The position numbers and the translations under genes were made by a program. DNA of 32,055 bases from Hydrogenophaga sp. (GTDB taxonomy: Bacteria > Pseudomonadota > Gammaproteobacteria > Burkholderiales > Burkholderiaceae_C): contig JAUYSB010000078.1 of the NCBI GenBank assembly GCA_030696525.1, positions 1-32,055 of the forward strand, written 5' to 3'. A model generated the notes under the pieces. The model saw only the letters and a list, made by a program, of their open reading frames with translations. It was not told where the DNA came from and did not search any database. Of the stretch, positions 3,627 through 31,562 are shown one piece after another. Position 1 is the stretch's first letter; each line of letters begins with the position of its first letter.

Positions 3627-8365
<4,739 letters not shown>

Positions 8366-12340: not shown

Positions 12341-12357
12341 GTCAACCCGTCCCTTGC

Positions 12358-13236: not shown

Positions 13237-13256
13237 GCAGAGGTCTCCAGTGTTGT

Positions 13257-14237: not shown

Positions 14238-14280
14238 GTCGTGTCTCCGTTGTGTTGTTGAACGCCGTTGCAAGGTACCG

Positions 14281-15507: not shown

Positions 15508-15535
15508 GTATCGGCAATGAATGTTGTGCCGATAC
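15508..15535 (-). promoter_or_regulatory. Perfect 9-bp inverted repeat abutting the FMN enzyme start codon
   Basis: GTATCGGCA (15508-15516) and TGCCGATAC (15527-15535) are perfect inverted repeats separated by 10 bases, so half-site centres lie 19 bp apart. On the coding strand the right arm ends immediately before the ATG at 15507 and replaces any clear Shine-Dalgarno sequence. It is either an operator for a dimeric regulator or an mRNA hairpin that hides the start site. Confidence 0.6.
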
Positions 15536-15579
15536 CTTAAGCGCGGGTGGTGCCGTTGCGACGTCGCACCACGTTATTG

Positions 15580-15599
15580 GTTTCACATATTGAACTTGC
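15580..15599 (-). promoter_or_regulatory. Operator-like repeat upstream of FMN enzyme (copy 2)
   Basis: GTTTCACATATTGAACTTGC, nearly identical to 14318-14337; the minus strand holds TTCAATATGTGAAAC. It ends 73 bases upstream of the FMN enzyme start, in the gap after the IclR1 gene. A likely IclR1 target. Confidence 0.65.
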
Positions 15600-15624
15600 G
15601 TGTGATGGCCCGGCGGCCACACGT

Positions 15625-16440
15625 TCAGACGTTGAGGGCGTCCGCGTCTGCGTTCAGCAGTGCAGCCGTGTCCAGCAGTTGCTGGTGCAGCTCGTCCAGC
15701 CGGTCTTCGCCATACAGCTCGGCGGTGCCAATGAGGCACAGCGCGGCAAAGGCATCACCACGGCCATCGAGCACGGGCACCGCGAGGGCATGCAGGCCAG
15801 GCACCACGTCACCGAGGTTGACACCAAAGCCGTGGCGGTCAGAGCGCTCACGCATCTTTTGCAAGGCTTCCAGTCGGCCGGTGCCCCGGCGTGCGATCTC
15901 TTGAGCCACGTTGTCGAGCAGCACCTCGCGCACCTCGTCTTCGGGCCGTGTCTGCAGGATGGCCACGCCACCCACCGACGTGAACAGCGGGCGGCGCGTG
16001 CCGGGGTGGATCATGAGGCCGGACAGCGGCAGGCTGCCTGCGCGTACGGTGCACACGTATTCGTTGCCGCTGCGCAGCAGCAGCAGCGCGAGGCCAGCCA
16101 GGCGGCGGGCAAAGCTGCGCACGGTGGCCTCGGCACGGCGCTGAAACTGCCCCCGGTGGGGCAGCGCAAACCCCAGTTCGTGCATGAGCGGGCCAGGCAG
16201 GTAGTGGCGGTCGCTGGCGCGTTGTTCCACCAGGCGCTCGTCCACCAGGCAGGCCAGCATGCGGTGCACGGTGGCCTTGTCCTGCTGGCAGGCCGCTGCC
16301 AGGTCAGACAGGCGCCAGCCGAAGCCGGGCCGCATGGCGATCATGCGCATGAGCTTGATGCCACGGCCCAGGCTTTGGGTGCCGCTGCGGTCGGGGCCGG
16401 CCGTCACGGGGGCTTGTTGCGCAAGGTGGGCGAGGTTCAT
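15625..16440 (-). CDS. IclR family transcriptional regulator (IclR1)
   Basis: The 271-residue product has the winged helix-turn-helix of IclR proteins (about 30-85: LGRGIKLMRMIA, WRLSDLAAACQQDKATVHRML) followed by the effector-binding domain (about 100-265), with RRGTGRLEALQKMRERSDRHG, GFGVNLGDVVPGLHALAVPV and FAALCLIGTAELYGEDRL. The start at 16440 gives a normal-length N-terminus. An ATG at 16479 in the same frame is possible; neither has a clear ribosome-binding site. It stands upstream of the FMN enzyme on the same strand and divergent from a small hypothetical gene. A motif at 16566-16580 shared with the promoters downstream suggests autoregulation and control of unit C. Confidence 0.88.
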   Translation of the reverse strand: MNLAHLAQQAPVTAGPDRSGTQSLGRGIKLMRMIAMRPGFGWRLSDLAAACQQDKATVHRMLACLVDERLVEQRASDRHYLPGPLMHELGFALPHRGQFQRRAEATVRSFARRLAGLALLLLRSGNEYVCTVRAGSLPLSGLMIHPGTRRPLFTSVGGVAILQTRPEDEVREVLLDNVAQEIARRGTGRLEALQKMRERSDRHGFGVNLGDVVPGLHALAVPVLDGRGDAFAALCLIGTAELYGEDRLDELHQQLLDTAALLNADADALNV

Positions 16441-16563
16441 GGTCAAAAGATTTTGCAATGGACGACGCAGGTAAGCCATTCAGGTTTGCACCAAGCCGAG
16501 GTCCGTGATGGTCTGTGTCAGGACAGTCCGCGGCGATTCTTGTGGCGGCTGCTTTGGACGTTA

Positions 16564-16961: not shown

Positions 16962-17797
16962 TCACGATGAGGCGCCGTCGGACCTCGTCTTCGCCAACAG
17001 CCACGCGCAGCACGCCGCAGGGATCGCCAACAACAGGTAGCCCGCGCGGTAGCTGCCGAAGGCACTGGCGATGCCACCAAACACCATGGGCCCGAGCACG
17101 ACACCGAAGAAGGTGATCGCCAGCGAGCCTCCGGTGGCCGCACTCGCCATGCCGGGTGGTGCCAGCCGCGCGACCTCGGCCAGGTAGACCCCGTTCCAAC
17201 CCGTGGCAGAGGCACCAAAGGCCACCAGCAGTGCCAGCACCAGCGCCTGCGGCGCGGCGGGCGCGAGGCAGGCGTTGGCGATGGCGGACAAGGCCATCAG
17301 GCCGGCCACCAGCGCCAGCGCAGGGCAGAGAACACCAGCGAGCAAGCGGCCAGGCGCGCCAGTGTGGGTTGCCGGGCGACCAGCAACACGGGTGCCACCA
17401 GGCGCGCGATGTCGATGGCGTGACCGTGTTCGCGATCGGCGTCCAGTGGCCCGCGTGTGACTTGTGCCAGCAGAACGCACGCGATGCAGCCTGCTGCCAC
17501 ACTCCACAACGCCGCCGCCACGCCACCCATCACCACCAACGGTGGCACCAGGGCGCCGGCCAGCAGCCCGAGCTGCCTGACGCGGATGGCGCCACGGCGC
17601 ACCACCAGCGGGCCCGAGGCCATGCTGGCCACCATGGCACCCACGTAGAGGATGGCGATGTAGACACCGATCAGGCCCGGCGACGCGCGCAAGGCCTCGC
17701 CCAGTGCCGGTGCCATGGCCGGCACCGCCAGCACGGCCATGGACACCAGCGCCTGGATGGCCAGCGTGGTGGCCAGCACGCCCCAGGGGCCGGTCAT
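16962..17797 (-). pseudogene. Decayed MFS transporter
   Basis: Two minus-strand frames together resemble one major facilitator permease. The 5' part (17797 to about 17320) begins MTGPWGVLATTLAIQALVSM; the 3' part (about 17320 to 16962) contains ASATGWNGVYLAEVARLAPP and SLAITFFGVVLGPMVFGGIA. The frames differ, and the total of about 278 codons is roughly 120 short of a normal 390-400-residue MFS protein. Two segments seem missing: one after QLGLLAGA (the expected helices 4-5) and one at SLVFSAL/ALALVAG (about 17320), where the frame also shifts. It is the last gene of unit B, 12 bases after the Bug receptor, so its loss does not break upstream genes. Confidence 0.8.
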
Positions 17798-17809
17798 CTC
17801 ATGCGCCTT

Positions 17810-18775
17810 TCAGTCCAGGCTGGCGCCCGAGGCTTTCACCACCTGGCCCCACTTGGCGATGTCGGCGTGCAGCACCTGGGCAAACTGCTGCGGGTCGGTG
17901 ATGTAGGGCTCGGCACCCTGCGCCATGAAGCGTTCGACCACGTCCCTGGACTTGAGCAACTCGTTCACGTCGGCGTTGATTTTGCGCACCACGGCGGCCG
18001 GCACCTTGGCCGGCGCGAACAGACCGAACCAGGGGTTGACGTCGAAGTCCTTGAAACCGGCTTCGGCAATTGTCGGGATCTGGCCGAAGGCGGCTGCGCG
18101 TTTGGCGCTGGTCACGGCCACCGGGTGCAGCGTGCCCTGTTTGATGGCGCCCGCCACGGACGGCAGGCTGGTGAAGACCAGGTGGATCTGACCGCCCATG
18201 AGGTCTTGCATGGCGGGCGCAGCACCCCGGTAGGGCACGTGCACCAGCTTCACCCCGGCGGCGGTGTTGAACATCTCGCCCAGCAGGTGGTTGACCGAGC
18301 CATTGCCGGCCGAACCGTAGGTGAGCTGGCCCGCTTTGGCCGCCGACACCAGGTCGGCGATGGTCTTGATGGGCGAGTCGGCCTTGGTCACGGCCACGAA
18401 GGGCAGCGTGGCCAGGGTGGCCACGGGGGCGAAATCCTTTTCCGGGTCGAAGGGCAGCTTTTTGTAGAGCGAGCCGTTGATGGCGTGGGTGCCCACATAG
18501 CTCATGAGCAGGGTGTGGCCGTCGGCGGGTGCCGCAGCCACCACCTCCATGCCCAGGTTGCCACCGGCGCCGGCGCGGTTCTCGACCACCACCGGCTGGC
18601 CCCATTTTTCGCTGAGCTTTTGCGCGATGGTGCGCGCCAGCGCGTCGGATGCACCGCCGGGTGTCTGCGGCACCACGATCTTGACCGGCCTGTTCGGAAA
18701 ATCCTGGGCCTGGCCCAACAGGGCGAAAGCGGCCAGCACGAGGCCACTGCCCCAGGTCACAACACGTTTCATCAT
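17810..18775 (-). CDS. Bug-type tripartite tricarboxylate transporter substrate-binding protein (unit B)
   Basis: The 321-residue periplasmic receptor has a Sec signal peptide (MMKRVVTWGSGLVLAAFALL, cleaved near GQAQ) and the family pattern FPNRPVKIVVPQTPGGASD, VENRAGAGGNLGMEVVA and SYVGTHAINGSLYKKLPFDP. The start at 18775 has GGAGACAAGACC just upstream; a second ATG follows immediately. It lies 25 bases after meaB in the B12 mutase unit, which suggests that it binds the carboxylic acid processed by that unit. No TctAB permease is nearby. It is clearly distinct from the Bug receptor at 13257, so the two probably bind different ligands. Confidence 0.92.
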   Translation of the reverse strand: MMKRVVTWGSGLVLAAFALLGQAQDFPNRPVKIVVPQTPGGASDALARTIAQKLSEKWGQPVVVENRAGAGGNLGMEVVAAAPADGHTLLMSYVGTHAINGSLYKKLPFDPEKDFAPVATLATLPFVAVTKADSPIKTIADLVSAAKAGQLTYGSAGNGSVNHLLGEMFNTAAGVKLVHVPYRGAAPAMQDLMGGQIHLVFTSLPSVAGAIKQGTLHPVAVTSAKRAAAFGQIPTIAEAGFKDFDVNPWFGLFAPAKVPAAVVRKINADVNELLKSRDVVERFMAQGAEPYITDPQQFAQVLHADIAKWGQVVKASGASLD

Positions 18776-18800
18776 GGTCTTGTCTCCGGTTGAAAACACG

Positions 18801-19709
18801 TCAGCGCGGGGTGGCCAGGGTGCTGAGCACCGCGTCCACCTGCTGCAGCAGGGGCGCCTGCAACTGCGCGCTGTCCAGGCTGCGCACGGCCTCGCCCACG
18901 CGCCTTTCGATGAGGCGGCGCAGTCGGTAGCGGGCGCGGCCGTCGAGCAGGGCGGCGCGGCGCTCGGTCTGGGCCAGCCACTGCTGGTGGCGGTCGATGG
19001 CGTCGGACAGCGCGGCCACCGATTCGGGCTGGCGCACGGCGGTCAGCAGCACCGGCGGGCGCCAAGCGCCCACCGGGTGGCGCGACACGGCGGCGATGCG
19101 CTGGATGTCGGTGACCATGCGGTGGGCACCGGGCAGGTCGGCCTTGTTGACCACGAAGATGTCGGCCATTTCCATGATGCCGGCCTTCATGGCCTGCACC
19201 ACGTCGCCGCTGTCGGGCAGCAGCACCAGCACCAAGGTGTCCACCTGCCCACGCGCGGCGTACTCGGCCTGGCCCACGCCCACGGTTTCCAGCACCACCT
19301 CGTCGAAGCCGTGGGCGTCCATCAGGTCCAGCATCTCGGGCAGGTTGTCCGACAGGCCGTCGGAGGTGGAGCGCGAACCGAGCGAACGGATGTAAAGCTC
19401 GGCGCTGCCCGGCAGTTCGTCCATGCGGATGCGGTCGCCCAGGATGGCGCCGCCGGATTTGGGGCTGCTCGGGTCCACCGCCAGCACACCCACGCGTTGG
19501 TCTGGGCGTGGCGTGTTCAGACGGTGCAAGGCCAGTTGCCCGGCCAGCGTGCTTTTGCCCGCGCCGGGGGCACCGGTCAGGCCGATGCGCCGAGCCAGGT
19601 GGGTCGGTGATGGCGTCAGTGCCTGCCGCAACAGGTGGTCCGCGCTGGCGTTGGCCAATTGGCTGAGCGCCCGGCCGAGGGCGTGGCGGTCCAGCGGGGC
19701 GCGGCTCAC
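18801..19709 (-). CDS. meaB: MeaB/ArgK-type GTPase chaperone of B12 acyl-CoA mutase
   Basis: The 302-residue G3E-type GTPase has Walker A GAPGAGKST at 46-54, switch sequence DPSSPKSGGAILGDRIRM, Walker B region ETVGVGQAEY and the guanine-specificity motif NKAD. MeaB proteins gate loading of adenosylcobalamin into acyl-CoA mutases and protect them from inactivation. At 302 residues it is a little shorter than most homologues (about 330). Its start overlaps the CoA transferase stop by 4 bases, so translation is coupled. Its presence in the same unit as both mutase subunits shows that the mutase there is a functioning B12 enzyme. Confidence 0.93.
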   Translation of the reverse strand: MSRAPLDRHALGRALSQLANASADHLLRQALTPSPTHLARRIGLTGAPGAGKSTLAGQLALHRLNTPRPDQRVGVLAVDPSSPKSGGAILGDRIRMDELPGSAELYIRSLGSRSTSDGLSDNLPEMLDLMDAHGFDEVVLETVGVGQAEYAARGQVDTLVLVLLPDSGDVVQAMKAGIMEMADIFVVNKADLPGAHRMVTDIQRIAAVSRHPVGAWRPPVLLTAVRQPESVAALSDAIDRHQQWLAQTERRAALLDGRARYRLRRLIERRVGEAVRSLDSAQLQAPLLQQVDAVLSTLATPR

Positions 19710-20836
19710 GCGCTCACGCTCCCCAGCACCTCGGCATGGTGCTGGTCCAGCAGTGGCGGCAGGCCGTAGCGGGTCGTGTGGCCGTCGAACTTGAGCGGGC
19801 TGGCCACGGCGCGCAGCGGGTACTCGCCGTCACCCAGCGGCACCACCATGTCGCGGGCGCGGGTGAGCTCGCTGTCAAGCGCCTGCGACAGGCTGCCGAT
19901 CTCGGAGGCCACCACCCCCAGCGGCGTCAGGCGGCGCACCCAATCCGCGGCCGATGCCGTCATCAGCACCTCGCCGATGGCCGCGAGCACGGGCACGCGG
20001 TGCTCGCGCCGTGCCGCCATGGTGGCAAACATCGGGTCGGTGGCCCACTGGGGGCGGCCGATCTCGGTGCAGAAGGTTTGCCAGAACTTGTCGTGGGTGA
20101 TGAAGAGGGTGAGCCAGCCGTCGGCGGTGGGGAAGATCTGTGCCGGCACCATGTAGGGGTGCGACGAATTGGCCAGGCGCTCCATCACCTCGCCCGCGTT
20201 CAGCGTGGCGCCGGCCAGGTAGTTGAGCTGCGAGAGCATGACGTCGTACATGGCCACGTCCACCTGGCCGCCCCGGCCTTCCACGATTTTGGCCAGCAGG
20301 CCCAGCGCGGCCACGATGCCGGCCGAGTTGTCCACCGCCGAGTAGCCGGCCTTGGTGGGTGGCGCGCTGGGGTCACCGGTGAGCGACATCACGCCGGTGA
20401 TGGCCTGGATCACGTAGTCGTAGGCGGGGCTTTCGGCGTAGGGGCCGTCCAGCCCGTAGCCGGTGAGGGCCACACACACCAGTTTGGGGTTGCAGGTGTT
20501 CAGCGAATCGTAGGTCAGGCCCAGCTTCTTGATGGCCGATGGCCGCAGGTTGGTCACCAGTGCGTGGGCCGTGGATGCCAGCGACTCGAGCGCGGCACGG
20601 CCCTCGGCCGAGGCCAGGTCGAGCACCACACTTTTTTTGTTGCGGTTGAGGCTGGTGAAGTAAGCGTTGTGCGGGCCGATGAAATGGGGGCTGACCTTGC
20701 GCGCGATGTCGCCCTCGGGCGGTTCGATCTTGATGACCTCGGCGCCCATGTCGGCCAGCAGCAGGCCACAGTACGGCCCGGCCAGCATGTGGCCGACTTC
20801 GATGACGCGTATGCCCGCCAGCGGCCCTGAGCTCAC
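19706..20836 (-). CDS. Family III CoA transferase (CaiB/BaiF)
   Basis: The 376-residue enzyme moves CoA between carboxylic acids through an aspartyl-CoA mixed anhydride. Family features are GIRVIEVGHMLAGPYCG at the start, ADMGAEVIKIEPPEGD (29-43), LNRNKKSVVLDL (63-74), NLRPSAIKKLGL and the catalytic Asp169 in YSAVDNSAG, the same number as in formyl-CoA transferase. Length is normal for the shorter members. It overlaps the small mutase subunit gene at one end and meaB at the other by 4 bases each. It most likely activates the acid imported for this unit, with succinyl-CoA or another acyl-CoA as donor. The acid is not identifiable from sequence alone. Confidence 0.92.
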   Translation of the reverse strand: MSSGPLAGIRVIEVGHMLAGPYCGLLLADMGAEVIKIEPPEGDIARKVSPHFIGPHNAYFTSLNRNKKSVVLDLASAEGRAALESLASTAHALVTNLRPSAIKKLGLTYDSLNTCNPKLVCVALTGYGLDGPYAESPAYDYVIQAITGVMSLTGDPSAPPTKAGYSAVDNSAGIVAALGLLAKIVEGRGGQVDVAMYDVMLSQLNYLAGATLNAGEVMERLANSSHPYMVPAQIFPTADGWLTLFITHDKFWQTFCTEIGRPQWATDPMFATMAARREHRVPVLAAIGEVLMTASAADWVRRLTPLGVVASEIGSLSQALDSELTRARDMVVPLGDGEYPLRAVASPLKFDGHTTRYGLPPLLDQHHAEVLGSVSA

Positions 20837-21245
20837 GACAACCTCGCGGCCAGCCCGGCCACCACCGTGTCCAGCGGCATGTCGGCGGTGAAGATGGCGG
20901 CCACCCCCAGTTGGTGGAGCATGTCGTGGTCTTCGGCCGGTATGGTGCCGCCCACGAACACCTTCACGTCGCCCGCGCCGGCTTCGCGCAGCGCGGCCAT
21001 CACGTCGGTGACCAGCTCTTTGTGGCTGCCTGAGAGGATGCTCAGGCCCACCGCGTCCACGCCTTCGTCCACCGCCACCTGGGCAATCTGCCCGGGGCTG
21101 CGGCGCAGGCCGGTGTAGATCACCTCGGCCCCGGCGTCGCGCAGGGTGAGGGCGACGATCTTGGCGCCGATGTCGTGGCCGTCCAGGCCGGGTTTGCCGA
21201 TCAGGATGCGGCGGCCCGCCAGCGGGCGTTGTTGTGTGACTGTGT

Positions 21246-21249
<4 letters not shown>
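20833..21249 (-). CDS. B12-binding small subunit of acyl-CoA mutase
   Basis: The 138-residue product is a stand-alone cobalamin-binding domain with DGHDIG (motif DxHxxG, His the lower cobalt ligand) in GKPGLDGHDIGAK, then GLSILSGSHKELV and VFVGGTIPAED, the SxL and GG motifs of this fold. Start 21249 overlaps the large-subunit stop by 4 bases, so both are made together. A separate small subunit of about 136 residues is known for isobutyryl-CoA and 2-hydroxyisobutyryl-CoA mutases and some archaeal methylmalonyl-CoA mutases, whereas the common bacterial methylmalonyl-CoA mutase carries this domain fused. Confidence 0.93.
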
Positions 21250-22870
<1,621 letters not shown>

Positions 22871-22871
<1 letters not shown>

Positions 22872-23671
22872 CACGAACCTTTGGAAAGAAGCTTGTCGGC
22901 GGCGGCCCAGTGGTCGTCGTGCAACCACGTGCGGGCCAGGTGGTGTTGTTCCACGCGGCGGTGGGCTTCCCAGCCCAGGCCTTGGCGCGCGGCCAGGGCC
23001 TGGGCCTTGATGCCGCGCAGCACCTGCGGTGGGCAGCTGTTCAGCGGCCGGGTGAAGGCGGCCATGTCGGCGCCTTGTGGGCCGTCGCTGATGACGGCAT
23101 CGGCCAGGCCCCAGGCCAGGGCCTGGTCGGCGGCCACGAGTTCGGTGCGGGCCATCATGCGCATGGCACGGGCTGGGCCCACCAGGCGGAACAGGTCGGG
23201 CCCGCCGCCCCAGGCCGAGGTGATGGCCAGCTTGGCCTGGATATAGCCGATGCGCGCGTGTGTGGCCTGCAGCCGCATGTCACAGGCCAGGGCCAGCTCG
23301 GCCCCACCGCCGATGGCGTCGCCGTTGAGGTAGGCCAGCACCGGCACCGGGCAGTGGCGCAGCGCGTCCAGCGCGTCGCAGGCCTCGTCCATCATGGCAA
23401 ACACGGCGGCCTCATCGCGCACGTCGGCCAGGTCGTGCAGGTCGCCGCCGGCGGCAAAGTAGCGCTCGCCCGCGCCGCTGAGCACGATGTAGCGCAGGTC
23501 GGTGCGGTCGCCAGCGGCGCGCACGGTGGCGGCCAGTTCGGCCAGCACCGGGCGGGCCAGTGCGTTGTGTTTGTGGGCGCGGTCCACGGTCAGCCACAGG
23601 GCGCCGGGGGCGGGTTCTTCGGCCCGGATGTGAACGGGCGTGTGGGTGGGTGTGTCTTGCATGGTGCTCAT
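22871..23671 (-). CDS. Enoyl-CoA hydratase/isomerase (crotonase) family protein
   Basis: The 266-residue product has the crotonase oxyanion-hole segments ERYFAAGGDLHD (69-80) and LNGDAIGGGAELALACD (115-131). Glu125 is present at the first catalytic position. At the second, where hydratases have Glu in GxPE, the sequence is GYIQAK with Gln145. A plain hydratase is therefore doubtful; an isomerase, decarboxylase or hydrolase of the superfamily is possible. It is the first gene of the mutase unit and its stop overlaps the mutase start (TGATG), so it should act on the same CoA intermediates. An alternative start is at 23662. Operator-like sites lie just upstream. Confidence 0.9.
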
Positions 23672-23685
23672 GCTAGGGCTGATTT

Positions 23686-23701
23686 GTTCTTGTGCAAGAA
23701 C
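23686..23701. promoter_or_regulatory. GTTC-N8-GAAC operator-like site 1, before mutase unit
   Basis: GTTCTTGTGCAAGAAC: 7-bp arms with a 2-base centre. It ends 15 bases upstream of the crotonase start and lies exactly 20 bp from site 2. The form fits IclR-family half-sites (GTTC/GAAC). Confidence 0.65.
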
Positions 23702-23705
23702 GTGT

Positions 23706-23721
23706 GTTCTGTATTTGGAAC
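23706..23721. promoter_or_regulatory. GTTC-N8-GAAC operator-like site 2, before mutase unit
   Basis: GTTCTGTATTTGGAAC, the same 16-bp frame as site 1, displaced by 20 bp (about two helical turns), so two dimers could bind the same DNA face. Confidence 0.62.
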
Positions 23722-23766
23722 AAAGAGGCGCTTGCGTGGGCTGTGAGCCAACATGGGACGCAGCTT

Positions 23767-23782
23767 GTTCGGCATGTCGAAC
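23767..23782. promoter_or_regulatory. GTTC-N8-GAAC operator-like site 3, before mutase unit
   Basis: GTTCGGCATGTCGAAC, with 5-bp GTTCG/CGAAC arms. Its centre is 61 bp (close to six helical turns) upstream of site 2, in the gap between the dctM end and the crotonase start. Confidence 0.55.
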
Positions 23783-23794
23783 CGGCAGGGGGTG

Positions 23795-25066
23795 TCAGCG
23801 CACCAGCGCGAGCGAGAAGATGGGCAGGTAGGTGACGAGCACCAGCACCACCAGCATCATCAGCACGAAGGGCGTGATGGCGCGCGCCACCGGCGCCAGC
23901 TTCATGCCGCTGATGGCCATGCCCACAAACAGGCAGTAGCCAATGGGTGGGGCGGCCATGCCTATGGCCACGTTGGTGACCATCATGGAACCGAAGTGGA
24001 TGGGATCGACGCCGAACTGGTTGGCGATGCCGATCAGCATGGGCCCTAGGATGACCATGATGGCGATCTCGTCCATCACCGCCGCCAGCACGAAAAAGCC
24101 CAGGTTCAGCGCCATCAGCATCATCCATTTTTCGTCGATGTGCTGGGCCAGCCAGCCTGCGAGTCGGGTGGCCATCTGCTCCTGCGCCACCAGAAAGCTG
24201 AAGCCGTTGGACACCGCCACGATGGCCATCACGATGGCACTGATGGCCATGGCGCTGGCGATCACCTGGGGCAGTTGCTTGAGCGTCAGCCGCTTTTCGA
24301 CCACGGTGCCCACAAACAGCGCGTACACACAGGCGACCACGGCCGACTCGGTGGGCGTGAACGCGCCCCCGTAAATGCCGCCCAGCACCACCACCGGCGC
24401 CAGCAGCGCCCAGATGCCGTCGCGCAACGCGGCCTTGATGTCGGCCAGGCTGGCGCGGGGTTCGCGCGGGCGCTGGCTGCGCAAGCCCTTGGTCACCACG
24501 ATGGCCGCCATGCCCAGCGCCATCATGGCGCCGGGCAACACCCCCGACAGGAACAGTTTGGTGATGGATTGCTCGGCAATCACACCCCAGATCACGAAGG
24601 CGATGGAGGGCGGGATGAGCGGCGCCAGGATGCCGGCGCTGACCACCAGGGCGGTGGCGTAGGCCTTGTCGTGGCCCCGCTCGACCATGGCCGGGATCAT
24701 CACCGCACCGATGGCGGCGGTGGTGGCCGGGGCCGAGCCGCTGACGGCCGCGAAGATCAGCGCGGCGCCGATCACGGCCAGCTCCATGCCGCCGGGCAGG
24801 TGGCGCACGAACACATCGGCCACCCGCACCATGCGCTGCGACAGGCCGCCGGCGCTCATGAGTTCGCCCGCCAGCATGAAGAAGGGAATGGCCAGCAGCG
24901 AGAAGCTTTGTGTGCCGGCCACCAGGGTTTGGGGCAGCAGCATGGGCTCGATGCCCGCGCTGAGCAAGACCACGATCACGCAGACCGCGATGGCAAACGC
25001 GAAGGGCATGCCCAGCGCCACGAGGGCGGCAAAGCCGGCCGAGAGTATCCAGGCGGTCAGGGACAT
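23795..25066 (-). CDS. dctM: TRAP transporter large permease (DctM family)
   Basis: The 423-residue inner-membrane protein has about twelve hydrophobic segments and the DctM pattern: LGMPFAFAI near the start, SFSLLAIPFFMLAGELMSAGG, GSAPATTAAIGAVMIPAM (the conserved SGSxxA-like helix-turn), and IPPSIAFVIWGVIAE. It forms the ion-coupled channel that takes a substrate from DctP with the help of DctQ. Start 25066 follows the dctQ stop by 7 bases; the longer frame overlaps dctQ. It is the last gene of unit A. TRAP systems with this receptor type usually carry C4-dicarboxylates, 2-oxo acids, sugar acids or similar organic acids. Confidence 0.94.
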   Translation of the reverse strand: MSLTAWILSAGFAALVALGMPFAFAIAVCVIVVLLSAGIEPMLLPQTLVAGTQSFSLLAIPFFMLAGELMSAGGLSQRMVRVADVFVRHLPGGMELAVIGAALIFAAVSGSAPATTAAIGAVMIPAMVERGHDKAYATALVVSAGILAPLIPPSIAFVIWGVIAEQSITKLFLSGVLPGAMMALGMAAIVVTKGLRSQRPREPRASLADIKAALRDGIWALLAPVVVLGGIYGGAFTPTESAVVACVYALFVGTVVEKRLTLKQLPQVIASAMAISAIVMAIVAVSNGFSFLVAQEQMATRLAGWLAQHIDEKWMMLMALNLGFFVLAAVMDEIAIMVILGPMLIGIANQFGVDPIHFGSMMVTNVAIGMAAPPIGYCLFVGMAISGMKLAPVARAITPFVLMMLVVLVLVTYLPIFSLALVR

Positions 25067-25073
25067 GGTGTCC

Positions 25074-25586
25074 TCATGGCGAGGAGGGGGTGGACGGGGC
25101 GACGGGACCACGCAGCACGTGTTCCAGGGCAAAGACGGCCATCAGCGCACCACAGGCCGGGGCGCTGGCGTAGAGCCAGGCCAGCGGGTAGCCGATGGCG
25201 GCCGAACGGCTGCCGCCCGAGTCCAGCACGTACAACACGCCGTACCAGGCAATGAAGGCACCGGCCAGGGCGATGGCCAGCGTGACCAGGCGGTCCACCC
25301 ACCGACGCAACGCCGGTGGCAGGTGGTCCACCAGCAGCTCCATGCGCACGTGGATGGCGTGCCGCACCCCCAGGCCGATGCTGAGCAGCATGCACCAGCT
25401 GAAGCAGGTGACGGCGAGTTCCTCGGTCCAGGTGGGGGCCTGGTTGAACACGTAGCGCATCAGCACCTGCAGCGTCAGCGAAGCCAGCATGGCCAGGGCC
25501 AGCAGCAGCACCGCCAGCTGCACGGCGCGAGCCAGGCCGTTGCAGCCTGTCACCAGGGCCCTGGACAGGGCACCCTGGGGGCTCAC
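25074..25586 (-). CDS. dctQ: TRAP transporter small permease (DctQ family)
   Basis: The 170-residue protein has four hydrophobic segments, with the DctQ signature RYVFNQAPTWTEELAVTCFSW (about 44-64) after the first. It bridges the DctP receptor and the DctM channel. The start codon is GTG at 25586, forming a GTGA overlap with the dctP stop, so the two are translated together. The C-terminus is a short Pro/Ser tail. Length is normal for the family. Confidence 0.92.
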   Translation of the reverse strand: MSPQGALSRALVTGCNGLARAVQLAVLLLALAMLASLTLQVLMRYVFNQAPTWTEELAVTCFSWCMLLSIGLGVRHAIHVRMELLVDHLPPALRRWVDRLVTLAIALAGAFIAWYGVLYVLDSGGSRSAAIGYPLAWLYASAPACGALMAVFALEHVLRGPVAPSTPSSP

Positions 25587-26584
25587 TTGACTTGGTCCAG
25601 CGCCGAGGCCAGCAGGTCCGGGCCGATGCTGGTGCGGAACTTCTCGTACACCGGCAACACGGCCTTGCGGAAGGCAGCAGGGTCCTGCACGGCGTTGACC
25701 ACCATGCCCTTGCCTTTGAGCACCTCGATCATCTGCTGGGTGTGTTCGAAGTTGACCTTGCGCTGCTCGGCCACGGCCAGCTTGGCCGCCTCCGTCACGG
25801 CGCTGCGCTGCTCGGCCGTGAGTTTGCCCAGGGTGCGCTTGCTCACCAGCAGCTCCAGCGCGGTGTAGGTGTGGTTGGTCTGGGACAGGTACTTGGTCAC
25901 CTCATAGACCTTGAGCGAGTCGATGAAGGCCAGCGGCAGTTCCAGGCCGTCGATCATGCCTTGTTGCACGGCGGTGAAGGTCTCGCCCCAGGCCATGGGC
26001 ACGGCCGAGCCGCCGAGTGCAGTGAACATGTCGATGAAGACCGGGTTCTGCATCACCCGGTACTTCACGCCCACCACGTCGCCCGGCGTGGTCACCGGCT
26101 TCTTGTTGTTGATCATGTTGCGAAAGCCCGCCTCCATGTAGCCCAGCACCACCACGCCCTTGGCGTCCAGGCGGCGGCCCATTTCGGCGCCCACGCTGCC
26201 GTCGAGCACCTTGCGGGCTTGGGTTTCGTTGGCATAGAGGAAGGGCAGGTCGTTGAGCTGGAAGGCGGGCTCCAGCTGGGCCACCACCGCGTTGGTGATG
26301 ATGGCCGCGTCCACCGTGCCAAAGCGCAGGCCTTCCACCATGGGTTTTTCGTCACCCAACTGGCGGTTGGGGAACAGCTGCACCTCGATGCTGCCCTTGC
26401 TGGCCGCTTCCAGTGCGGTCTTGAAGGCGCGCGCGCCGATGGCGGACGGGTCCTGCGGGCTGTCGGCCGTGGCCCAGCCCAGCTTGATGACCGTTTTGCC
26501 CTGCTGGGCAAAGGCCGCAGGCAGCGTGGCCACGGTGGCGAGGGAGGCCATGCAGGCGGCGAGAAAGGTCTTGCGGAACATCAT
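25583..26584 (-). CDS. dctP: TRAP transporter periplasmic substrate-binding protein (DctP family)
   Basis: The 333-residue receptor has a signal peptide (MMFRKTFLAACMASLATVAT, cut near AFAQQ) and then the DctP fold: IKLGWATADSPQDP, VQLFPNRQLGDEKPMVEGLR, and GYMEAGFRNMINNKKPVTTP, which holds the Arg residue expected to bind the ligand carboxylate (FRNM). The start at 26584 has AAGGAG eight bases upstream. The in-frame extension beyond it overlaps the amidohydrolase gene and is spurious. It lies 35 bases after that gene and overlaps dctQ. The ligand is likely a carboxylic acid or lactone-derived acid used by the two enzymes upstream in the same unit. Confidence 0.94.
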   Translation of the reverse strand: MMFRKTFLAACMASLATVATLPAAFAQQGKTVIKLGWATADSPQDPSAIGARAFKTALEAASKGSIEVQLFPNRQLGDEKPMVEGLRFGTVDAAIITNAVVAQLEPAFQLNDLPFLYANETQARKVLDGSVGAEMGRRLDAKGVVVLGYMEAGFRNMINNKKPVTTPGDVVGVKYRVMQNPVFIDMFTALGGSAVPMAWGETFTAVQQGMIDGLELPLAFIDSLKVYEVTKYLSQTNHTYTALELLVSKRTLGKLTAEQRSAVTEAAKLAVAEQRKVNFEHTQQMIEVLKGKGMVVNAVQDPAAFRKAVLPVYEKFRTSIGPDLLASALDQVK

Positions 26585-26619
26585 CAAAGTCTCCTTGTGG
26601 GTATGGGAAGCAGGGTGGG

Positions 26620-27513
26620 TCACCCCGGTGGGGTGTCGGCCCAATACAGGCGCGTGGGGTTGTGCACCAGCACCGTGGTTTGCAAGGCCTTGTCCGGCAG
26701 CCAGTCGGCCACCAGCGAGACCAGTTGCGCGTCGTCCGGCACCGCGTGGGGGCTGGCCGGGTGGGGCCAGTCCGTGCCCCACACCAGGCGGTGCGGGTTG
26801 GCCTGGACATAACGTTCGGCCAGGCGGCGCACATCGGCGTCGTTGTGGCTGTGTGGCGAGATGCGGTAGGGCGCAGACAGCTTGAGCCACACGCTGCCCT
26901 CTGCGAGCTGCGACAGCAGGTTGGCGAAACCCTGGCTTTGGGTGATGGCCGATGCGGCGTGGTGGCCCAGGTGGTCCACCACCACCGTCACACCCATGGC
27001 CAGCACGCGCGCGACCAGCTCGGGTTGTTGCGCCACGTCCACCAGCAGCTGCACATGCCAGCCAAAGGGTTTGATCCTGGCCACGATCTGCTCGACCGCC
27101 GACAGGTCGGCGCCGCCGGTGAACACCGTGGTGATGCGCGTGCCCCTCGCGCCCAGCGCGTGCCAGCGGGCGATGTCGGCCTCGGGTGTGGTGGGCGACA
27201 CCACGGCCACACCGCGCATGTGATCGCCGTGTGCCGAGAGGATGTCTTCGAAGCTGCGGTGGTCGGCGCCGAAGACCGTGGGATGGATGAGCACGCTGCG
27301 GTCCATGCCGAAGCGCTGGCACAAGGCCAGGTAGTCGGCCAGCGGGGCATCGGGTGGCGTGTAGTGGCGCGCGGGTGCGTAGGGGTAGCGTGCCGCGTCG
27401 AAGACGTGGAAGTGGCAGTCGCAGGCGCCAGGGGGCAGGCGTTGCGGGCGCACTGGTACGCCTTCGGCTTCGCCTGCGGAGCGAGCGCCTTCGGGCGGCC
27501 GTGCTGCGCTCAT
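26620..27513 (-). CDS. Amidohydrolase-2 family hydrolase (2-pyrone-4,6-dicarboxylate lactonase-like)
   Basis: The 297-residue TIM-barrel enzyme belongs to the COG3618 amidohydrolases, which hydrolyse lactones such as 2-pyrone-4,6-dicarboxylate, often with little or no metal. Motifs: CDCHFHVF with His34 and His36 (HxH), QLLVDVAQQPEL, VVVDHLGHH with His181, and WGTDWPHP with Asp248, the general base. The first 25 residues are an extra hydrophilic leader. Its ATG overlaps the reductase stop by 4 bases (ATGA). Together with the reductase and TRAP genes it suggests import and opening of a lactone or decarboxylation of a dicarboxylate; the true substrate is unknown. Confidence 0.88.
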   Translation of the reverse strand: MSAARPPEGARSAGEAEGVPVRPQRLPPGACDCHFHVFDAARYPYAPARHYTPPDAPLADYLALCQRFGMDRSVLIHPTVFGADHRSFEDILSAHGDHMRGVAVVSPTTPEADIARWHALGARGTRITTVFTGGADLSAVEQIVARIKPFGWHVQLLVDVAQQPELVARVLAMGVTVVVDHLGHHAASAITQSQGFANLLSQLAEGSVWLKLSAPYRISPHSHNDADVRRLAERYVQANPHRLVWGTDWPHPASPHAVPDDAQLVSLVADWLPDKALQTTVLVHNPTRLYWADTPPG

Positions 27514-28562
27514 TCGACGATGGCCCCCAGCAGATCGGGGCTGGGCGCGATCTCGCCGCGTTCGATGCGGCGTATGGTCTCGTTCACGCGCCGGTGCAAG
27601 GTGACGTCGATGCCCACTTCATCGCCACGCCGCGCCACCAGGCCGTTGATGCCATCGGTCTCGGTGCGCCGGCCTTTGCCAATGTCCTGGCCCATGGAGG
27701 GGCGCTGCGCGTCGCTGCGCGACTGAGCCACGTCCATGATCATGCGGGTGATGGCGTCGTAGGCGGCCGGGTCGTCTTCCGAGCGCGCCAGCAGGTCCAG
27801 GTCCAGCCCGCCCACCGGTTCGAGCGCCAGGCCCAGCGCGCGGCCCACCCGTATGCAGGAGCTGCCCAGGCGGATGCTCAAGTTGCGCGCCACCTCGTTG
27901 TGGTCGCGCTGTTTGCCGGTCAGGCCGGTGAGCGCACACACGCCGTTGCGCATGGCGTTGATGGTCAGCTTGGACCAGCGCTCGCCCCACAGGTTGGTGG
28001 TCACCTTGCAGCTGTCACCGTGGGCCAGCAACTGGCCGATCAGCTCGGCCCTGGGCGTGACCTGGCCGTGCACCTCGCCGATGCGCATGCCCGGCTTCTT
28101 GTCGTCGCCCAGCGGCGAGTTGCGCACGATCTGGCCGGGCCCCACCAGCTCGGCCGCCAGCGCGCTGACCGAACAGCCCAGCACCCGGCCCCAGCCGGCC
28201 ACGCTGGCGATGCTGTCTTCGTTGATGCCGTTCTGCAGCGAGACCAGGCAGCCCGTGGGCGCCAGGTAGGGCAGGATGAGCTGGGTGGCCCACAGCGTGT
28301 CGTAGGACTTCACCGCGATGAAGGCCACGTCAATCGGTTGTTCGCGCACCAGCTGCTGCACCTCGCCCACGTGCAGCGCGCGCACCGGCGTGGCCACCGA
28401 ACCGGCGCCGTTCATGCCGCTCACCTTGAGGCCGTGCTCGCGCATGGCCAGCACATGCTCGGGCCAGGCATCGACCAGCACCGTGTCCACCCCGGCATGC
28501 GTTGTATGGGCACCCACATAGCCACCCACCGCACCCGCGCCCACCACACACACTCGTGTCAT
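27510..28562 (-). CDS. 2-Dehydropantoate 2-reductase (ketopantoate reductase) family protein
   Basis: The 350-residue NAD(P)-dependent enzyme opens with the Rossmann motif VVGAGAVGGYVGAH (6-19). It has Lys85 in FIAVKSYDT, the NGIN stretch that follows strand 5 of the family, and the C-terminal helical domain with WSKLTINAMRNGVCALTG and RRTETDGINGLV, where Lys and Glu are the usual catalytic and substrate residues. Housekeeping PanE is near 300 residues; this longer, operon-borne form more likely reduces another 2-oxo acid or oxidises a 2-hydroxy acid in catabolism. It heads unit A, divergent from IclR2, with a pair of operator-like sites between them. Confidence 0.9.
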   Translation of the reverse strand: MTRVCVVGAGAVGGYVGAHTTHAGVDTVLVDAWPEHVLAMREHGLKVSGMNGAGSVATPVRALHVGEVQQLVREQPIDVAFIAVKSYDTLWATQLILPYLAPTGCLVSLQNGINEDSIASVAGWGRVLGCSVSALAAELVGPGQIVRNSPLGDDKKPGMRIGEVHGQVTPRAELIGQLLAHGDSCKVTTNLWGERWSKLTINAMRNGVCALTGLTGKQRDHNEVARNLSIRLGSSCIRVGRALGLALEPVGGLDLDLLARSEDDPAAYDAITRMIMDVAQSRSDAQRPSMGQDIGKGRRTETDGINGLVARRGDEVGIDVTLHRRVNETIRRIERGEIAPSPDLLGAIVE

Positions 28563-28707: not shown

Positions 28708-29526
28708 TTGAATAACGAATTAGATGTTCAGCCGGCCGAACAAGTGATATCGGCCGAGCCCAGCCCGCCAGCGGTCGGGGGCGTGGCCGTGACGGCGGTG
28801 GGGCGGGTGCTCGACATCTTCGAGGCCTTCCAGAAGGTGCAGAAGCCTTTGTCGCTGACCGACCTGGCCGAACTCACCAGCATCCCCAAAAGCAGCTGCC
28901 ACGCCATCGTGGCCACGCTGATTTCGCGGGGTTACCTGTATTCCCTGAGCCGGCCGCGCGCGCTCTACCCGACGCGGCGCTTCTTTGACATCGCCAGCGA
29001 CATCCACGCCCACGACCCCTTCGTCGAACACGTGATGCCCATGCTGGAGCGGCTGCGCGACGCCTCGCGCGAGACCGTCATCCTGGGCAAGCGCCAGGGC
29101 GATGCGGTGATCTACCTGCAGGTGGTGGAGGGGCCACACTCCATCCGCTATTCGGCCAAACCCGGCCAGTTCAAACCGCTGCACTCCAGCTCCATCGGCA
29201 AGGCGCTGATGGGCAGCCTCAAGGAGGCCGAGCTGCGGACGCAACTGGCCGCGCGCGAGCTCACGCCGGTGACCTCGGCCACCATCACCGACCACGAGGC
29301 CCTGGTCACCGACATCCTGGAAAGCCGCCGCCGGGGCTACTTCGTGACGCGGGGTGAAAACGTGCCCGACGTCTGGGCTGTCTCGGCCTTCCTGAATGTG
29401 CAATCCGAAACCCTGGCGGTGGCGATTGCCGGGCCGCGTCACCGCATGGAAAACAACGTGGTGGAGTGCGCGCAACTGCTGCTGGCGACCTGCAGCTTCA
29501 TCTCACGCCAATGGGCGCGCAGCTGA
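28708..29526 (+). CDS. IclR family transcriptional regulator (IclR2)
   Basis: The 272-residue regulator has an N-terminal winged helix (about 30-90: VGRVLDIFEAFQ, LSLTDLAELTSIPKSSCHAI) and an effector domain (about 105-265) containing DASRETVILGKRQGDAVIYL, HSSSIGKALMGSL and SRRRGYFVTRGENVPDVWAV. The start is TTG at 28708: the only upstream ATG (28685) runs into a stop at once, and GGGG lies about 7 bases before the TTG. It is divergent from unit A, whose promoter shares a paired operator pattern with the mutase unit, so it probably controls both. Its 3' end overlaps the hydrolase gene by 16 bases. Confidence 0.9.
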   Translation: MNNELDVQPAEQVISAEPSPPAVGGVAVTAVGRVLDIFEAFQKVQKPLSLTDLAELTSIPKSSCHAIVATLISRGYLYSLSRPRALYPTRRFFDIASDIHAHDPFVEHVMPMLERLRDASRETVILGKRQGDAVIYLQVVEGPHSIRYSAKPGQFKPLHSSSIGKALMGSLKEAELRTQLAARELTPVTSATITDHEALVTDILESRRRGYFVTRGENVPDVWAVSAFLNVQSETLAVAIAGPRHRMENNVVECAQLLLATCSFISRQWARS

Positions 29527-30335
29527 GGGCGCCTGACCAGCTCCTGAACACGCCCTGCGGCGAGGGCGTGGTGGTGTGGCGCTGCTGGGGCGCGGCATCG
29601 GCGCGGCCGGTGTTGCTGCTGCACGGCGGCAGCGGCAGCTGGACACACTGGATTCGCAACATCCCGGCGCTGCTGGCCGCAGGGCACCAGGTGTGGGTGC
29701 CCGACCTGCCGGGTTTCGGCGAATCGGCCAGCCTGCCCGAGGGCAGCGACGCCGATGCCGTTGTGCCCCATCTGCTGGCGGGCTTGCGCGCGCTGCCCGT
29801 GGTGGGGCCGTGGGAGGTGGTGGCGTTTTCCTTCGGTTCGCTGGTGGCCTGCCTGCTGGCCAGCGCGCATCCAGACGTGGTGTCGCGCCTGTTGCTGGTG
29901 GGCCTGCCCATCCTGCCGCTGGCAACGGGCAGGGGCGTGCGGCTGGCGCCGGTGGGCGCGGCGGCCACGCCGGCCGAGCGCGTGGCGGCCCACCGCGCCA
30001 ACCTCGCGGCCATCATGCTGCACCGTGCCGACAGCATCGACGACGACACCGTGGCCCTGCAGGCCGTCAACGCCGCGCGCGACCGCATGCGCACCCGCCG
30101 CCTGGTGACCACCGACGCCTGCCACAAGGCGCTGTTGTCGCTGCGCTGCCCCTTTGCCTGCATCTGGGGCCGGGAGGACGTGCTGTACCGCGAGCGTTGG
30201 GATCAGGTCCGCGCCGCCTGCCTGGGCAACACGCTGTGCGCCGGTCTGCACCTCGTGCCCGACGCTGGCCATTGGGTGCAGTACGAGGCGGCGGATGTGT
30301 TCGATCGCCACATGCTGGCCTGGCTCAGCCCGTGA
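29511..30335 (+). CDS. Alpha/beta hydrolase
   Basis: The 274-residue hydrolase has the oxyanion region LLLHGGSGSWTHW (35-47), PDLPGFGES, a nucleophile elbow AFSFGS with Ser107, an acid Asp223 in WGREDVLY and His254 in DAGHWVQYE. The elbow lacks the first Gly of the usual GxSxG (Ala-Phe-Ser-Phe-Gly), seen in some C-C bond hydrolases and esterases. Start 29511 lies inside the end of the IclR2 gene and is the only ATG that begins just before the fold, so expression is coupled to the regulator. Substrate unknown; ester, lactone or thioester hydrolysis would fit the neighbourhood. Confidence 0.87.
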   Translation: MGAQLRAPDQLLNTPCGEGVVVWRCWGAASARPVLLLHGGSGSWTHWIRNIPALLAAGHQVWVPDLPGFGESASLPEGSDADAVVPHLLAGLRALPVVGPWEVVAFSFGSLVACLLASAHPDVVSRLLLVGLPILPLATGRGVRLAPVGAAATPAERVAAHRANLAAIMLHRADSIDDDTVALQAVNAARDRMRTRRLVTTDACHKALLSLRCPFACIWGREDVLYRERWDQVRAACLGNTLCAGLHLVPDAGHWVQYEAADVFDRHMLAWLSP

Positions 30336-31530: not shown

Positions 31531-31562
31531 GGCCGTTCCCTTAACACAGCAAAGGAAACACC

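What the first reader, a model, noticed from the sequence alone, without database searches (positions are those of the whole stretch)
16962..28562. Candidate undescribed acid-catabolism system: TRAP + lactonase-like + reductase + CoA transferase + split B12 mutase
Seen: one operon has a TRAP transporter, an amidohydrolase-2 enzyme and a ketopantoate-reductase homologue; the next has a crotonase, both mutase subunits, a family III CoA transferase, MeaB and a Bug receptor. Shared operator-like sites join them. I know no described pathway with this combination. Inference: an imported acid or lactone is opened and redox-adjusted, made into a CoA ester by transfer, rearranged by the mutase and sent to central metabolism, plausibly as succinyl-CoA or another linear acyl-CoA. 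Branched or quaternary-carbon dicarboxylates are good guesses.
Basis: inference. Interest (0 to 1): 0.8.

Follow-up and report, generated by a model that had tools for sequence, protein, structure and literature searches.

The report
Unassigned B12-mutase acid-degradation gene cluster
This bacterium carries a rare, apparently mobile set of genes that seems to import unusual organic acids and rearrange their carbon skeleton with a vitamin B12 enzyme whose active site differs from the known mutases it was compared with, so the compound it degrades is still unknown.

Summary
In detail: a KPR–amidohydrolase–TRAP operon and a crotonase–mutase(large, small)–family III CoA transferase–MeaB–Bug operon, with similar operator-like sites upstream of both. 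Two corrections. (1) The system is larger: an IclR gene at 28708-29526, and RraA–TauD–Bug–FMN dehydrogenase–IclR at 11633-16479, are linked to the mutase in two related genomes as well. (2) KPR is not a conserved partner (found in 1 of 6 mutase genomes tested). The recurring unit is mutase–MeaB, mostly with the crotonase, and in 11 of 15 loci with the CoA transferase; acid transporters vary.

The mutase belongs to a well-supported clade of its own. It keeps MCM's Tyr89, Arg207 and His244, so a carboxylated substrate is likely, but has Ala243, Val330 and Cys/Ala366 (43 rows; 0 of 71 others have Ala243). It is not 2-hydroxyisobutyryl-CoA mutase, and the host has a separate MCM-type gene. The nearest working models are the E. 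coli Sbm operon and the IaaL/IaaGH steps of indoleacetate degradation.

Best reading: CoA transfer to a substituted dicarboxylate, succinyl-/malonyl-type rearrangement, then a crotonase step, possibly decarboxylation. The substrate is not identified. Ten literature searches found no description of this gene set.

The parts
27510..28562 (-). ketopantoate-reductase-like oxidoreductase (KPR)
   Evidence: TIGR00745 141.8 bits against cut-off 141.35; Pfam ApbA and ApbA_C; GxGxxG at residue 8
26620..27513 (-). amidohydrolase-2, LigI / sulfomuconolactone-hydrolase-like
   Evidence: Pfam Amidohydro_2; best PDB matches are named 2-pyrone-4,6-dicarboxylate hydrolase
25583..26581 (-). TRAP solute receptor DctP
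   Evidence: Pfam DctP
25074..25586 (-). TRAP small permease DctQ
   Evidence: Pfam DctQ
23795..25066 (-). TRAP large permease DctM
   Evidence: TIGR00786 407.5 bits against 268.45
22871..23671 (-). crotonase-superfamily enzyme, first gene of the mutase operon
   Evidence: Pfam ECH_1; first hydratase Glu kept (E125), second replaced by Gln (Q145) in 21 of 21 rows, window included
21246..22874 (-). AdoCbl-dependent acyl-CoA mutase, large subunit, distinct active-site class
   Evidence: TIGR00641 633.5 bits against 303.8; Y89/R207/H244 kept, A243/V330/C366; tree
20833..21249 (-). mutase small, B12-binding subunit
   Evidence: TIGR00640 130.8 bits against 57.45; DGHDIG motif
19706..20836 (-). family III CoA transferase
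   Evidence: Pfam CoA_transf_3; Asp of the PAYD motif kept in 10 of 10 rows, window included
18801..19709 (-). MeaB-type GTPase chaperone
   Evidence: Pfam MeaB; TIGR00750 228.4 bits, slightly under its cut-off of 240.75; Walker A
17810..18772 (-). Bug/TctC solute receptor
   Evidence: Pfam TctC
16962..17797 (-). MFS-like transporter gene split over two frames (remnant or assembly fault)
   Evidence: ORFs 16962-17507 and 17297-17797; MFS_1 below its cut-off for the first, nothing for the second
15625..16479 (-). IclR-family regulator 2
   Evidence: Pfam HTH_IclR and IclR_C; follows the mutase operon in L102
14281..15507 (-). FMN-dependent 2-hydroxyacid dehydrogenase
   Evidence: Pfam FMN_dh; linked in L101 and L102
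13257..14237 (-). second Bug/TctC receptor
   Evidence: Pfam TctC
12358..13236 (-). TauD/TfdA-family 2-oxoglutarate dioxygenase
   Evidence: Pfam TauD; HSD motif; orthologue in 3 of 6 mutase genomes and 0 of 5 others, E up to 1e-40
11633..12340 (-). RraA-like aldolase/decarboxylase (LigK-like)
   Evidence: Pfam RraA-like; PRK09262 178.8 bits against 179
28708..29526 (+). IclR-family regulator 1, divergent from KPR
   Evidence: NCBIfam BhcR/PcaR-type IclR models, below their cut-offs; 47-78% relatives near the mutase operon elsewhere
29511..30335 (+). alpha/beta hydrolase overlapping the end of IclR1
   Evidence: Pfam Abhydrolase_1 for ORF 29466-30335; 73% relative beside IclR1 in L102
28665..28682 (+). 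operator-like site GTTTTATATTTCGAACAA
23706..23723 (+). operator-like site GTTCTGTATTTGGAACAA
23686..23701 (.). GTTCTTGTGCAAGAAC: 7-base perfect inverted arms around two bases
   Evidence: sequence; L102 has GTTCTTGTGTGAGAAC in the matching region
23767..23782 (.). operator-like site GTTCGGCATGTCGAAC
   Evidence: with two flanking bases, 16/18 to L102, 0 of 300 shuffles

Best explanation
An IclR1-controlled catabolic regulon imports unusual carboxylic acids (TRAP, Bug). Accessory enzymes (alpha/beta hydrolase, LigI-like amidohydrolase, TauD dioxygenase, FMN hydroxyacid dehydrogenase, RraA-like aldolase, here also KPR) trim them to a substituted dicarboxylate. The family III transferase moves CoA onto it, probably from succinyl-CoA. 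The split AdoCbl mutase, kept active by its own MeaB, then interconverts an R-succinyl-CoA and an R-malonyl-CoA type ester, where R is bulkier than in methylmalonyl/succinyl-CoA. The crotonase acts on the mutase product, possibly as a non-oxidative decarboxylase, releasing an acyl-CoA for beta-oxidation. Shown by sequence: gene content, recurring linkage, distinct active-site class, similar operator-like sites. Inferred: a carboxylated bulky substrate, CoA donor, import, regulator action. Guess: direction, decarboxylation, identity of R.
For: Five-gene order crotonase-mutL-mutS-CoA transferase-MeaB in 11 of 15 sequences compared, window included, L098 being a near-copy of L097. Crotonase beside the mutase without a transferase in L005, L007, L104 and in 5 of 10 f93 stretches, so the two probably act on one compound. 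Tyr89, Arg207, His244 kept and V330, C/A366 present in all 43 rows that have Ala243; 0 of 71 other rows have Ala243. The iaa-like mutase L088, in a cluster with hydantoinase A/B, acyl-CoA dehydrogenase and molybdenum hydroxylase, also lost Gln330 and Asn366 and is the weakly supported sister; in A. aromaticum IaaL and IaaGH are assigned to phenylsuccinyl-CoA and benzylmalonyl-CoA (PMC8360864). Sbm precedent for mutase + crotonase-superfamily decarboxylase + CoA transfer + MeaB-type protein. Varied acid transporters beside the unit. G360 has TRAP, amidohydrolase and TauD in the same gene run as the mutase. A partial MCM-type gene (QTSGW) and a MeaB-like gene lie on another contig of the host.
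Against: The crotonase lacks ScpB's H66 and Y140 (G and S align there; that these are catalytic is recalled), and its best structural matches are hydratases such as LiuC, so decarboxylation is not shown. The 243/330/366 changes may alter adenosyl or cobalamin packing rather than substrate room; no coordinates were examined. TauD is absent from 3 of 6 mutase genomes, so accessory enzymes may belong to other pathways. The CoA donor is not tested.
Confidence: 0.45

Rival explanations
1. The same machinery runs branched to linear: a quaternary or branched malonyl-type ester such as dimethylmalonyl-CoA is rearranged to a substituted succinyl-CoA, and the crotonase is a hydratase of a later unsaturated CoA ester. 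This is.
For: Two loci (L096, L004) pair the unit with a 2OG-Fe(II) oxygenase, an aldehyde dehydrogenase and an SDR, a set able to turn a methyl group into a carboxylate; crotonase structure matches are hydratases.
Against: The crotonase has lost the second hydratase Glu in 21 of 21 rows; no acyl-CoA dehydrogenase was found among the window ORFs scanned; no direct evidence for gem-dimethyl substrates.
Confidence: 0.25
2. The neighbouring operons are separate pathways gathered on a catabolic island; only mutase, MeaB, crotonase, CoA transferase and a transporter form one system. (Compatible with either reading of the mutase step.)
For: KPR orthologue only in this genome (1 of 11); TauD absent from G018, G489 and G610, and the TauD block present without the mutase nearby on a Variovorax plasmid.
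Against: TauD block linked to the mutase in 3 of 3 loci where both were found, in different arrangements; similar operator-like sites at both operons.
Confidence: 0.4
3. It is an ordinary extra methylmalonyl-CoA mutase for propionate metabolism.
For: Tyr89 and Arg207 kept; TIGR00641 and TIGR00640 above cut-off.
Against: Ala243 and Val330 absent from the 71 other rows compared; separate clade; MCM-type gene elsewhere in the host; the 4 listed same-genus genomes have no match at E up to 1e-150.
Confidence: 0.07
4. It is a mutase for a non-carboxylated acid (2-hydroxyisobutyryl, isobutyryl or pivalyl type).
For: The HCM clade is a near neighbour in the tree (97/93); split subunits; branched-acid theme.
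Against: HCM has Ile and Gln where this clade has Tyr89 and Arg207; Ala at the position of HCM's Asp117 (alignment; the role of Asp117 is recalled); no CoA ligase in the operon.
Confidence: 0.05

Closest known systems
iaa operon of Aromatoleum aromaticum (IaaL, IaaGH, IaaF; indoleacetate degradation)
   Same: CoA transferase followed by a split B12 mutase on an aryl-substituted succinyl/malonyl-CoA; the iaa-like mutase in L115 is the weak sister and also lost Gln330 and Asn366
   Different: The iaa-like mutase has Tyr243, Asn287, Gly330; no hydantoinase, molybdenum hydroxylase or acyl-CoA dehydrogenase among the window ORFs scanned; transferases 25-29% identical. IaaG of A. aromaticum itself was not obtained
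E. coli Sbm operon (scpA, argK, scpB, scpC)
   Same: Same four functions: mutase, MeaB-type GTPase, crotonase-superfamily enzyme, CoA transferase
   Different: ScpA is fused and canonical; ScpB residues H66/Y140 not matched; ScpC is a different kind of transferase (no real alignment)
2-hydroxyisobutyryl-CoA mutase system (HcmAB, HCL, MeaH) of Aquincola tertiaricarbonis
   Same: Split mutase and MeaB-type chaperone in Burkholderiales, for an unusual branched acid
   Different: Ile/Gln instead of Tyr89/Arg207; uses a CoA ligase, not a transferase (PMC7176365, passages)
Anaerobic (1-methylalkyl)succinate pathway
   Same: CoA activation, succinyl-to-malonyl rearrangement, decarboxylation (mentioned in the PMC8360864 introduction; detail recalled)
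   Different: Anaerobic fumarate-addition context; its mutase was not compared here
2-pyrone-4,6-dicarboxylate hydrolase LigI and aldolase LigK
   Same: Families of the amidohydrolase and the RraA protein
   Different: Both below or at the edge of NCBIfam cut-offs; no further lig genes noticed among the ORFs scanned

Membership tests
AdoCbl acyl-CoA mutase superfamily, split type | Catalytic large subunit plus B12-binding small subunit with DxHxxG, and a MeaB-type chaperone | tested here: met
Methylmalonyl-CoA mutase (canonical) | Tyr89 and Arg207 for the carboxylate (role recalled) | tested here: met
   43 of 43 rows with Ala243
Methylmalonyl-CoA mutase (canonical) | Tyr243, Gln330, Asn366 | tested here: not met
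   A, V, C in the window; among 43 rows V330 in 43, C366 in 28, A366 in 15
2-hydroxyisobutyryl-CoA mutase | Ile90, Gln208, Asp117 (HCM numbering, roles recalled) | tested here: not met
   Tyr, Arg, Ala
2-hydroxyisobutyryl-CoA mutase | adjacent CoA ligase (HCL) | tested here: not met
   CoA transferase instead; no AMP-binding match among the operon's genes
IaaGH benzylmalonyl-CoA mutase | in a cluster with hydantoinase, molybdenum hydroxylase and IaaF-type dehydrogenase (in part recalled; seen in L115) | tested here: not met
   window ORFs scanned; L115
IaaGH benzylmalonyl-CoA mutase | activity on phenylsuccinyl-CoA / benzylmalonyl-CoA | not testable with these tools
   needs enzyme assay
Sbm-type operon | mutase, MeaB-type GTPase, crotonase-superfamily gene and CoA transferase together | tested here: met
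Sbm-type operon | crotonase is a ScpB-type methylmalonyl-CoA decarboxylase (H66, Y140; recalled as catalytic) | tested here: not met
   Gly and Ser align there
Enoyl-CoA hydratase | two catalytic Glu (recalled) | tested here: not met
   second Glu is Gln in 21 of 21 rows, window included
Family III CoA transferase | CoA_transf_3 domain and catalytic Asp | tested here: met
   (that this Asp is the catalytic one is recalled)
4-sulfomuconolactone hydrolase / LigI | score above the NCBIfam cut-off | tested here: not met
   162 bits against 500
Ethylmalonyl-CoA mutase | ECM active-site signature | not tested
   no ECM reference sequence was obtained

The most novel reading that the evidence does not exclude
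The Ala243/Val330 mutase clade, found in Proteobacteria and Actinobacteria, catalyses a B12 carbon-skeleton rearrangement of a bulky carboxylated acyl-CoA not yet assigned to any enzyme, and with its crotonase forms an 'activate, rearrange, remove CO2' route that lets aerobic bacteria degrade substituted or quaternary-carbon dicarboxylates.
Probability: 0.42. Interest if true: 0.75.

Novelty: new variant of a known kind. Interest (0 to 1): 0.6.

Why it matters
B12 acyl-CoA mutases with a known substrate are few (recalled), and each has explained how bacteria handle compounds that ordinary beta-oxidation cannot. A patchily distributed clade (some copies on plasmids among IS elements, none found in the four listed same-genus genomes) with its own active-site signature and a recurring operon gives a directly testable target: substrate screening of one enzyme could assign many genomes, and may explain removal of branched, terpenoid-derived or aryl-substituted dicarboxylates in nature.

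Tried and rejected
Rejected: canonical MCM and HCM (active-site residues, tree). Left open: ethylmalonyl-CoA mutase (no reference sequence obtained; of 414 plasmid records with a match, the 60 shown had none annotated as such). Pantoate or 3,3-dimethylmalate catabolism as a reading of KPR + FMN dehydrogenase + RraA: only a thought, because KPR is not conserved. Involvement of the BadH/BadI genes at the right edge: no evidence.

Led nowhere: literature searches on quaternary dicarboxylates, mutase + TauD + IclR clusters, MCM residue numbers, HCM residues and annotation terms of the cluster (0 papers). The genome-wide operator search was not specific; three of its other hits were looked at and gave nothing linked. 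The structure search returned general crotonases in the 50 rows shown; four of the five models had mean pLDDT of 58-68, and only the best (84.7) was used. The second Diaphorobacter mutase (L096_b) is a different, very divergent type.

Limits: neighbourhoods rest on crude ORF picking, tblastn and Pfam scans of chosen ORFs (not every ORF of the window or loci was scanned). Rows and loci are related and include near-copies. The 43 mutase rows were gathered by their Ala243, so only the other positions are independent of that choice; 23 of them were put in the tree and fall in one clade. The best shared stretch of L101 and L102 (17/18) lies at the start of IclR1 and may reflect related coding sequence rather than an operator. 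The host is an 80% complete MAG. On checking, the crotonase proved to be missing beside the mutase in more loci than first written, so the odds of the best explanation went from 0.5 to 0.45 and of the novel case from 0.45 to 0.42.

Full report
Observation. The window is one contig of an 80% complete metagenome-assembled genome (GC about 68%). Two minus-strand operons run KPR–amidohydrolase–DctP–DctQ–DctM and crotonase–mutase large–mutase small–family III CoA transferase–MeaB–Bug. Within them genes overlap by four bases or lie 7 to 38 bases apart. The 123-base gap between DctM and the crotonase, and the gap upstream of KPR, hold operator-like sites.

Shared sites. GTTCTGTATTTGGAACAA (23706) and GTTTTATATTTCGAACAA (28665) are the only two places in the window within three mismatches of the joint pattern, and none of 100 shuffles gave two (the pattern was built from the sites). 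Comparing whole regions, the two share at best 15 of 18 bases, reached in 7 of 300 shuffled pairs. A third site (23765-23782, upstream of the crotonase) and the IclR1/crotonase region of relative L102 share 16 of 18 (0 of 300). L102 and L101 share 17 of 18 (0 of 300), but that stretch lies at the start of IclR1 in both and may be coding. The weakest of the ten pairs, KPR/IclR1 against L096, gave 14 of 18, reached in 37 of 300 (sequences). In the genome the short motif is common: 11 hits against 6 for the reversed control. The shared sites are probably real and sit near an IclR gene, but the motif alone does not define a regulon.

The system is larger than stated. A divergent IclR gene (IclR1, 28708-29526) and an alpha/beta hydrolase lie at the upstream end. 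Relatives of IclR1 (47-78%) sit near the mutase operon elsewhere. In relative G131 (L102) the order is alpha/beta hydrolase–IclR1, then divergently crotonase–mutase–CoA transferase–MeaB–Bug, then IclR2–FMN dehydrogenase–Bug2–TauD–RraA; the last block corresponds to window 11633-16479 (81-94% identity). In G360 (L101) the run is MeaB–CoA transferase–mutase–crotonase–DctM–DctQ–DctP–amidohydrolase (64%)–TauD (77%), facing IclR1, with RraA, FMN dehydrogenase, a gluconolactonase-like gene, an esterase-like gene and a second TRAP permease and receptor beyond MeaB. At E up to 1e-40 a TauD orthologue is in 3 of 6 mutase-bearing genomes and 0 of 5 others tested. At E up to 1e-60 KPR is in this genome only (1 of 11). 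The amidohydrolase has a 64% relative in G360; weaker ones (36-41%) are widespread: 9 of 11 genomes had a match, with or without the mutase. On a Variovorax plasmid the IclR2–FMN dehydrogenase–Bug2–TauD–RraA block stands beside a CoA transferase and two CoA ester lyases, with no mutase in the 24 kb shown, and a 79% KPR lies about 93 kb away next to an IclR2-like gene. So TauD–FMN dehydrogenase–RraA is a module of its own that has joined the mutase module in more than one arrangement.

The recurring unit. Among 15 sequences compared (14 loci and the window), 11 have the five-gene order crotonase–mutL–mutS–CoA transferase–MeaB (L098 is a near-copy of L097). L005, L007 and L104 lack the transferase; L103 lacks transferase and crotonase. 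An IclR gene is near in 9 of these 11; none was seen in L100, and L004 is cut by its contig end. Transporters differ: TRAP DctPQM (Paraburkholderia), TAXI-type TRAP (Sulfitobacter plasmid), Bug plus an ABC receptor (Diaphorobacter plasmid), TRAP and Bug here. The Marinobacter plasmid copy has IS elements within a few kilobases and a cobalamin adenosyltransferase next to MeaB. In a gammaproteobacterial family (f93), 17 of 36 genomes carry a close mutase, and 0 of 60 genomes of other families in the same search. In ten f93 stretches read, the crotonase is beside the mutase in five (L145-L148, L151), not in four (L143, L144, L149, L150), and one is cut (L152). L143 and L144 have an IclR gene (50-51% to the Paraburkholderia one); L149 and L150 have a 30% CoA transferase some kilobases off; the five crotonase-bearing stretches gave no match to the transferases, transporters or IclR genes used as queries. 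In the window's own family 4 of 399 genomes (own included) have a homologue of 86% or more, and the four listed same-genus genomes have no match at E up to 1e-150; 3 of 369 genomes match in a class-wide draw, own included. This is a patchy, probably horizontally moved cassette.

The mutase. Against solved structures the best match is 2-hydroxyisobutyryl-CoA mutase, then MCM. Aligned to MCM, the window has Tyr89, Arg207 and His244, but Ala243, Val330 and Cys366. In an alignment of 114 rows, 43 have Ala243; all 43 have Tyr89, Arg207, His244 and Val330, with Cys (28) or Ala (15) at 366. Of the 71 other rows none has Ala243 or Val330; 68 have Gln330 and 67 have Asn366 (first seen). That Tyr89 and Arg207 bind the substrate carboxylate is recalled from MCM work, not tested. 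The tree puts 15 proteobacterial and 8 actinobacterial members in one clade (100/96), with the iaa-like L088 as weak sister (88/73, long branch) and HCM next (97/93). L088 lies in a cluster with hydantoinase A and B, acyl-CoA dehydrogenase, molybdenum hydroxylase and a distant family III transferase, which I take, partly from recall, for an iaa-type indoleacetate cluster. It too has lost Gln330 and Asn366, but keeps Tyr243. In A. aromaticum IaaL and IaaGH are assigned to the phenylsuccinyl-CoA and benzylmalonyl-CoA steps (PMC8360864: abstract, introduction and passages read). The host also has a partial QTSGW-type mutase gene and a MeaB-like gene on another contig.

The crotonase and transferase. 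The crotonase keeps one hydratase Glu (E125) and has Gln for the second (Q145) in 21 of 21 rows, window included. It lacks the H66 and Y140 of E. coli ScpB. Its model (mean pLDDT 84.7) matches LiuC and other hydratases best. Hydration, decarboxylation and other chemistry remain open. The transferase keeps its presumed catalytic Asp in 10 of 10 rows and is below the cut-off of each NCBIfam model listed, with succinate–glutarate CoA-transferase on top.

Mechanism. The best reading is CoA transfer to a substituted dicarboxylate, rearrangement between succinyl- and malonyl-type esters, and a crotonase step, in the manner of the Sbm operon (PMC3850637, passages) and of IaaL/IaaGH. Direction, decarboxylation and substrate are not shown. 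The genes beside the unit (2OG oxygenases, aldehyde dehydrogenase, lactonase-like enzymes, aldolases, flavin monooxygenases in L103) suggest that it receives fragments of larger or branched compounds, perhaps different ones in different hosts.

Literature. Ten searches, seen as listings, showed no description of this gene set. Four papers were opened in part: PMC8360864, PMC3850637, PMC7176365 and PMC11599936. The library holds only open-licence papers, so print elsewhere cannot be excluded.

Noticed in passing
window 30763-32055, + strand: BadH (473.8 bits against cut-off 431.2) and the start of BadI, cut by the contig end: cyclohexanecarboxylate degradation genes beside the cluster. Link to the mutase system untested.
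   Followed up: partly
L096:897-4190: Diaphorobacter plasmid carries a second, very divergent split mutase with its own MeaB and an AMP-binding gene about 11 kb from the clade mutase; Leu89/Asn207/Gln243 fits neither MCM nor HCM.
   Followed up: partly
L116 (G017): Another Burkholderiales split mutase with Ser287/Gly330/Ala366 near a carboxyltransferase and a nitroreductase: possibly a further substrate class.
   Followed up: no
L010: Actinomadura member of the clade: a luciferase-like monooxygenase lies between mutase small subunit and CoA transferase, followed by a CoA ligase, two acyl-CoA dehydrogenases and an enoyl-CoA hydratase. Other actinobacterial loci were not annotated in this way.
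   Followed up: partly
L103 (G489): A 90% mutase in a distant family sits among two FMO-like monooxygenases, a luciferase-like monooxygenase and a FAD_binding_2 oxidoreductase, with no CoA transferase or crotonase match nearby.
   Followed up: partly
window 3608-8365, - strand: 1585-aa hybrid sensor kinase with CHASE, several PAS, receiver and Hpt domains.
   Followed up: no
window 16962-17797, - strand: MFS-like gene split over two frames, remnant or assembly fault.
   Followed up: no
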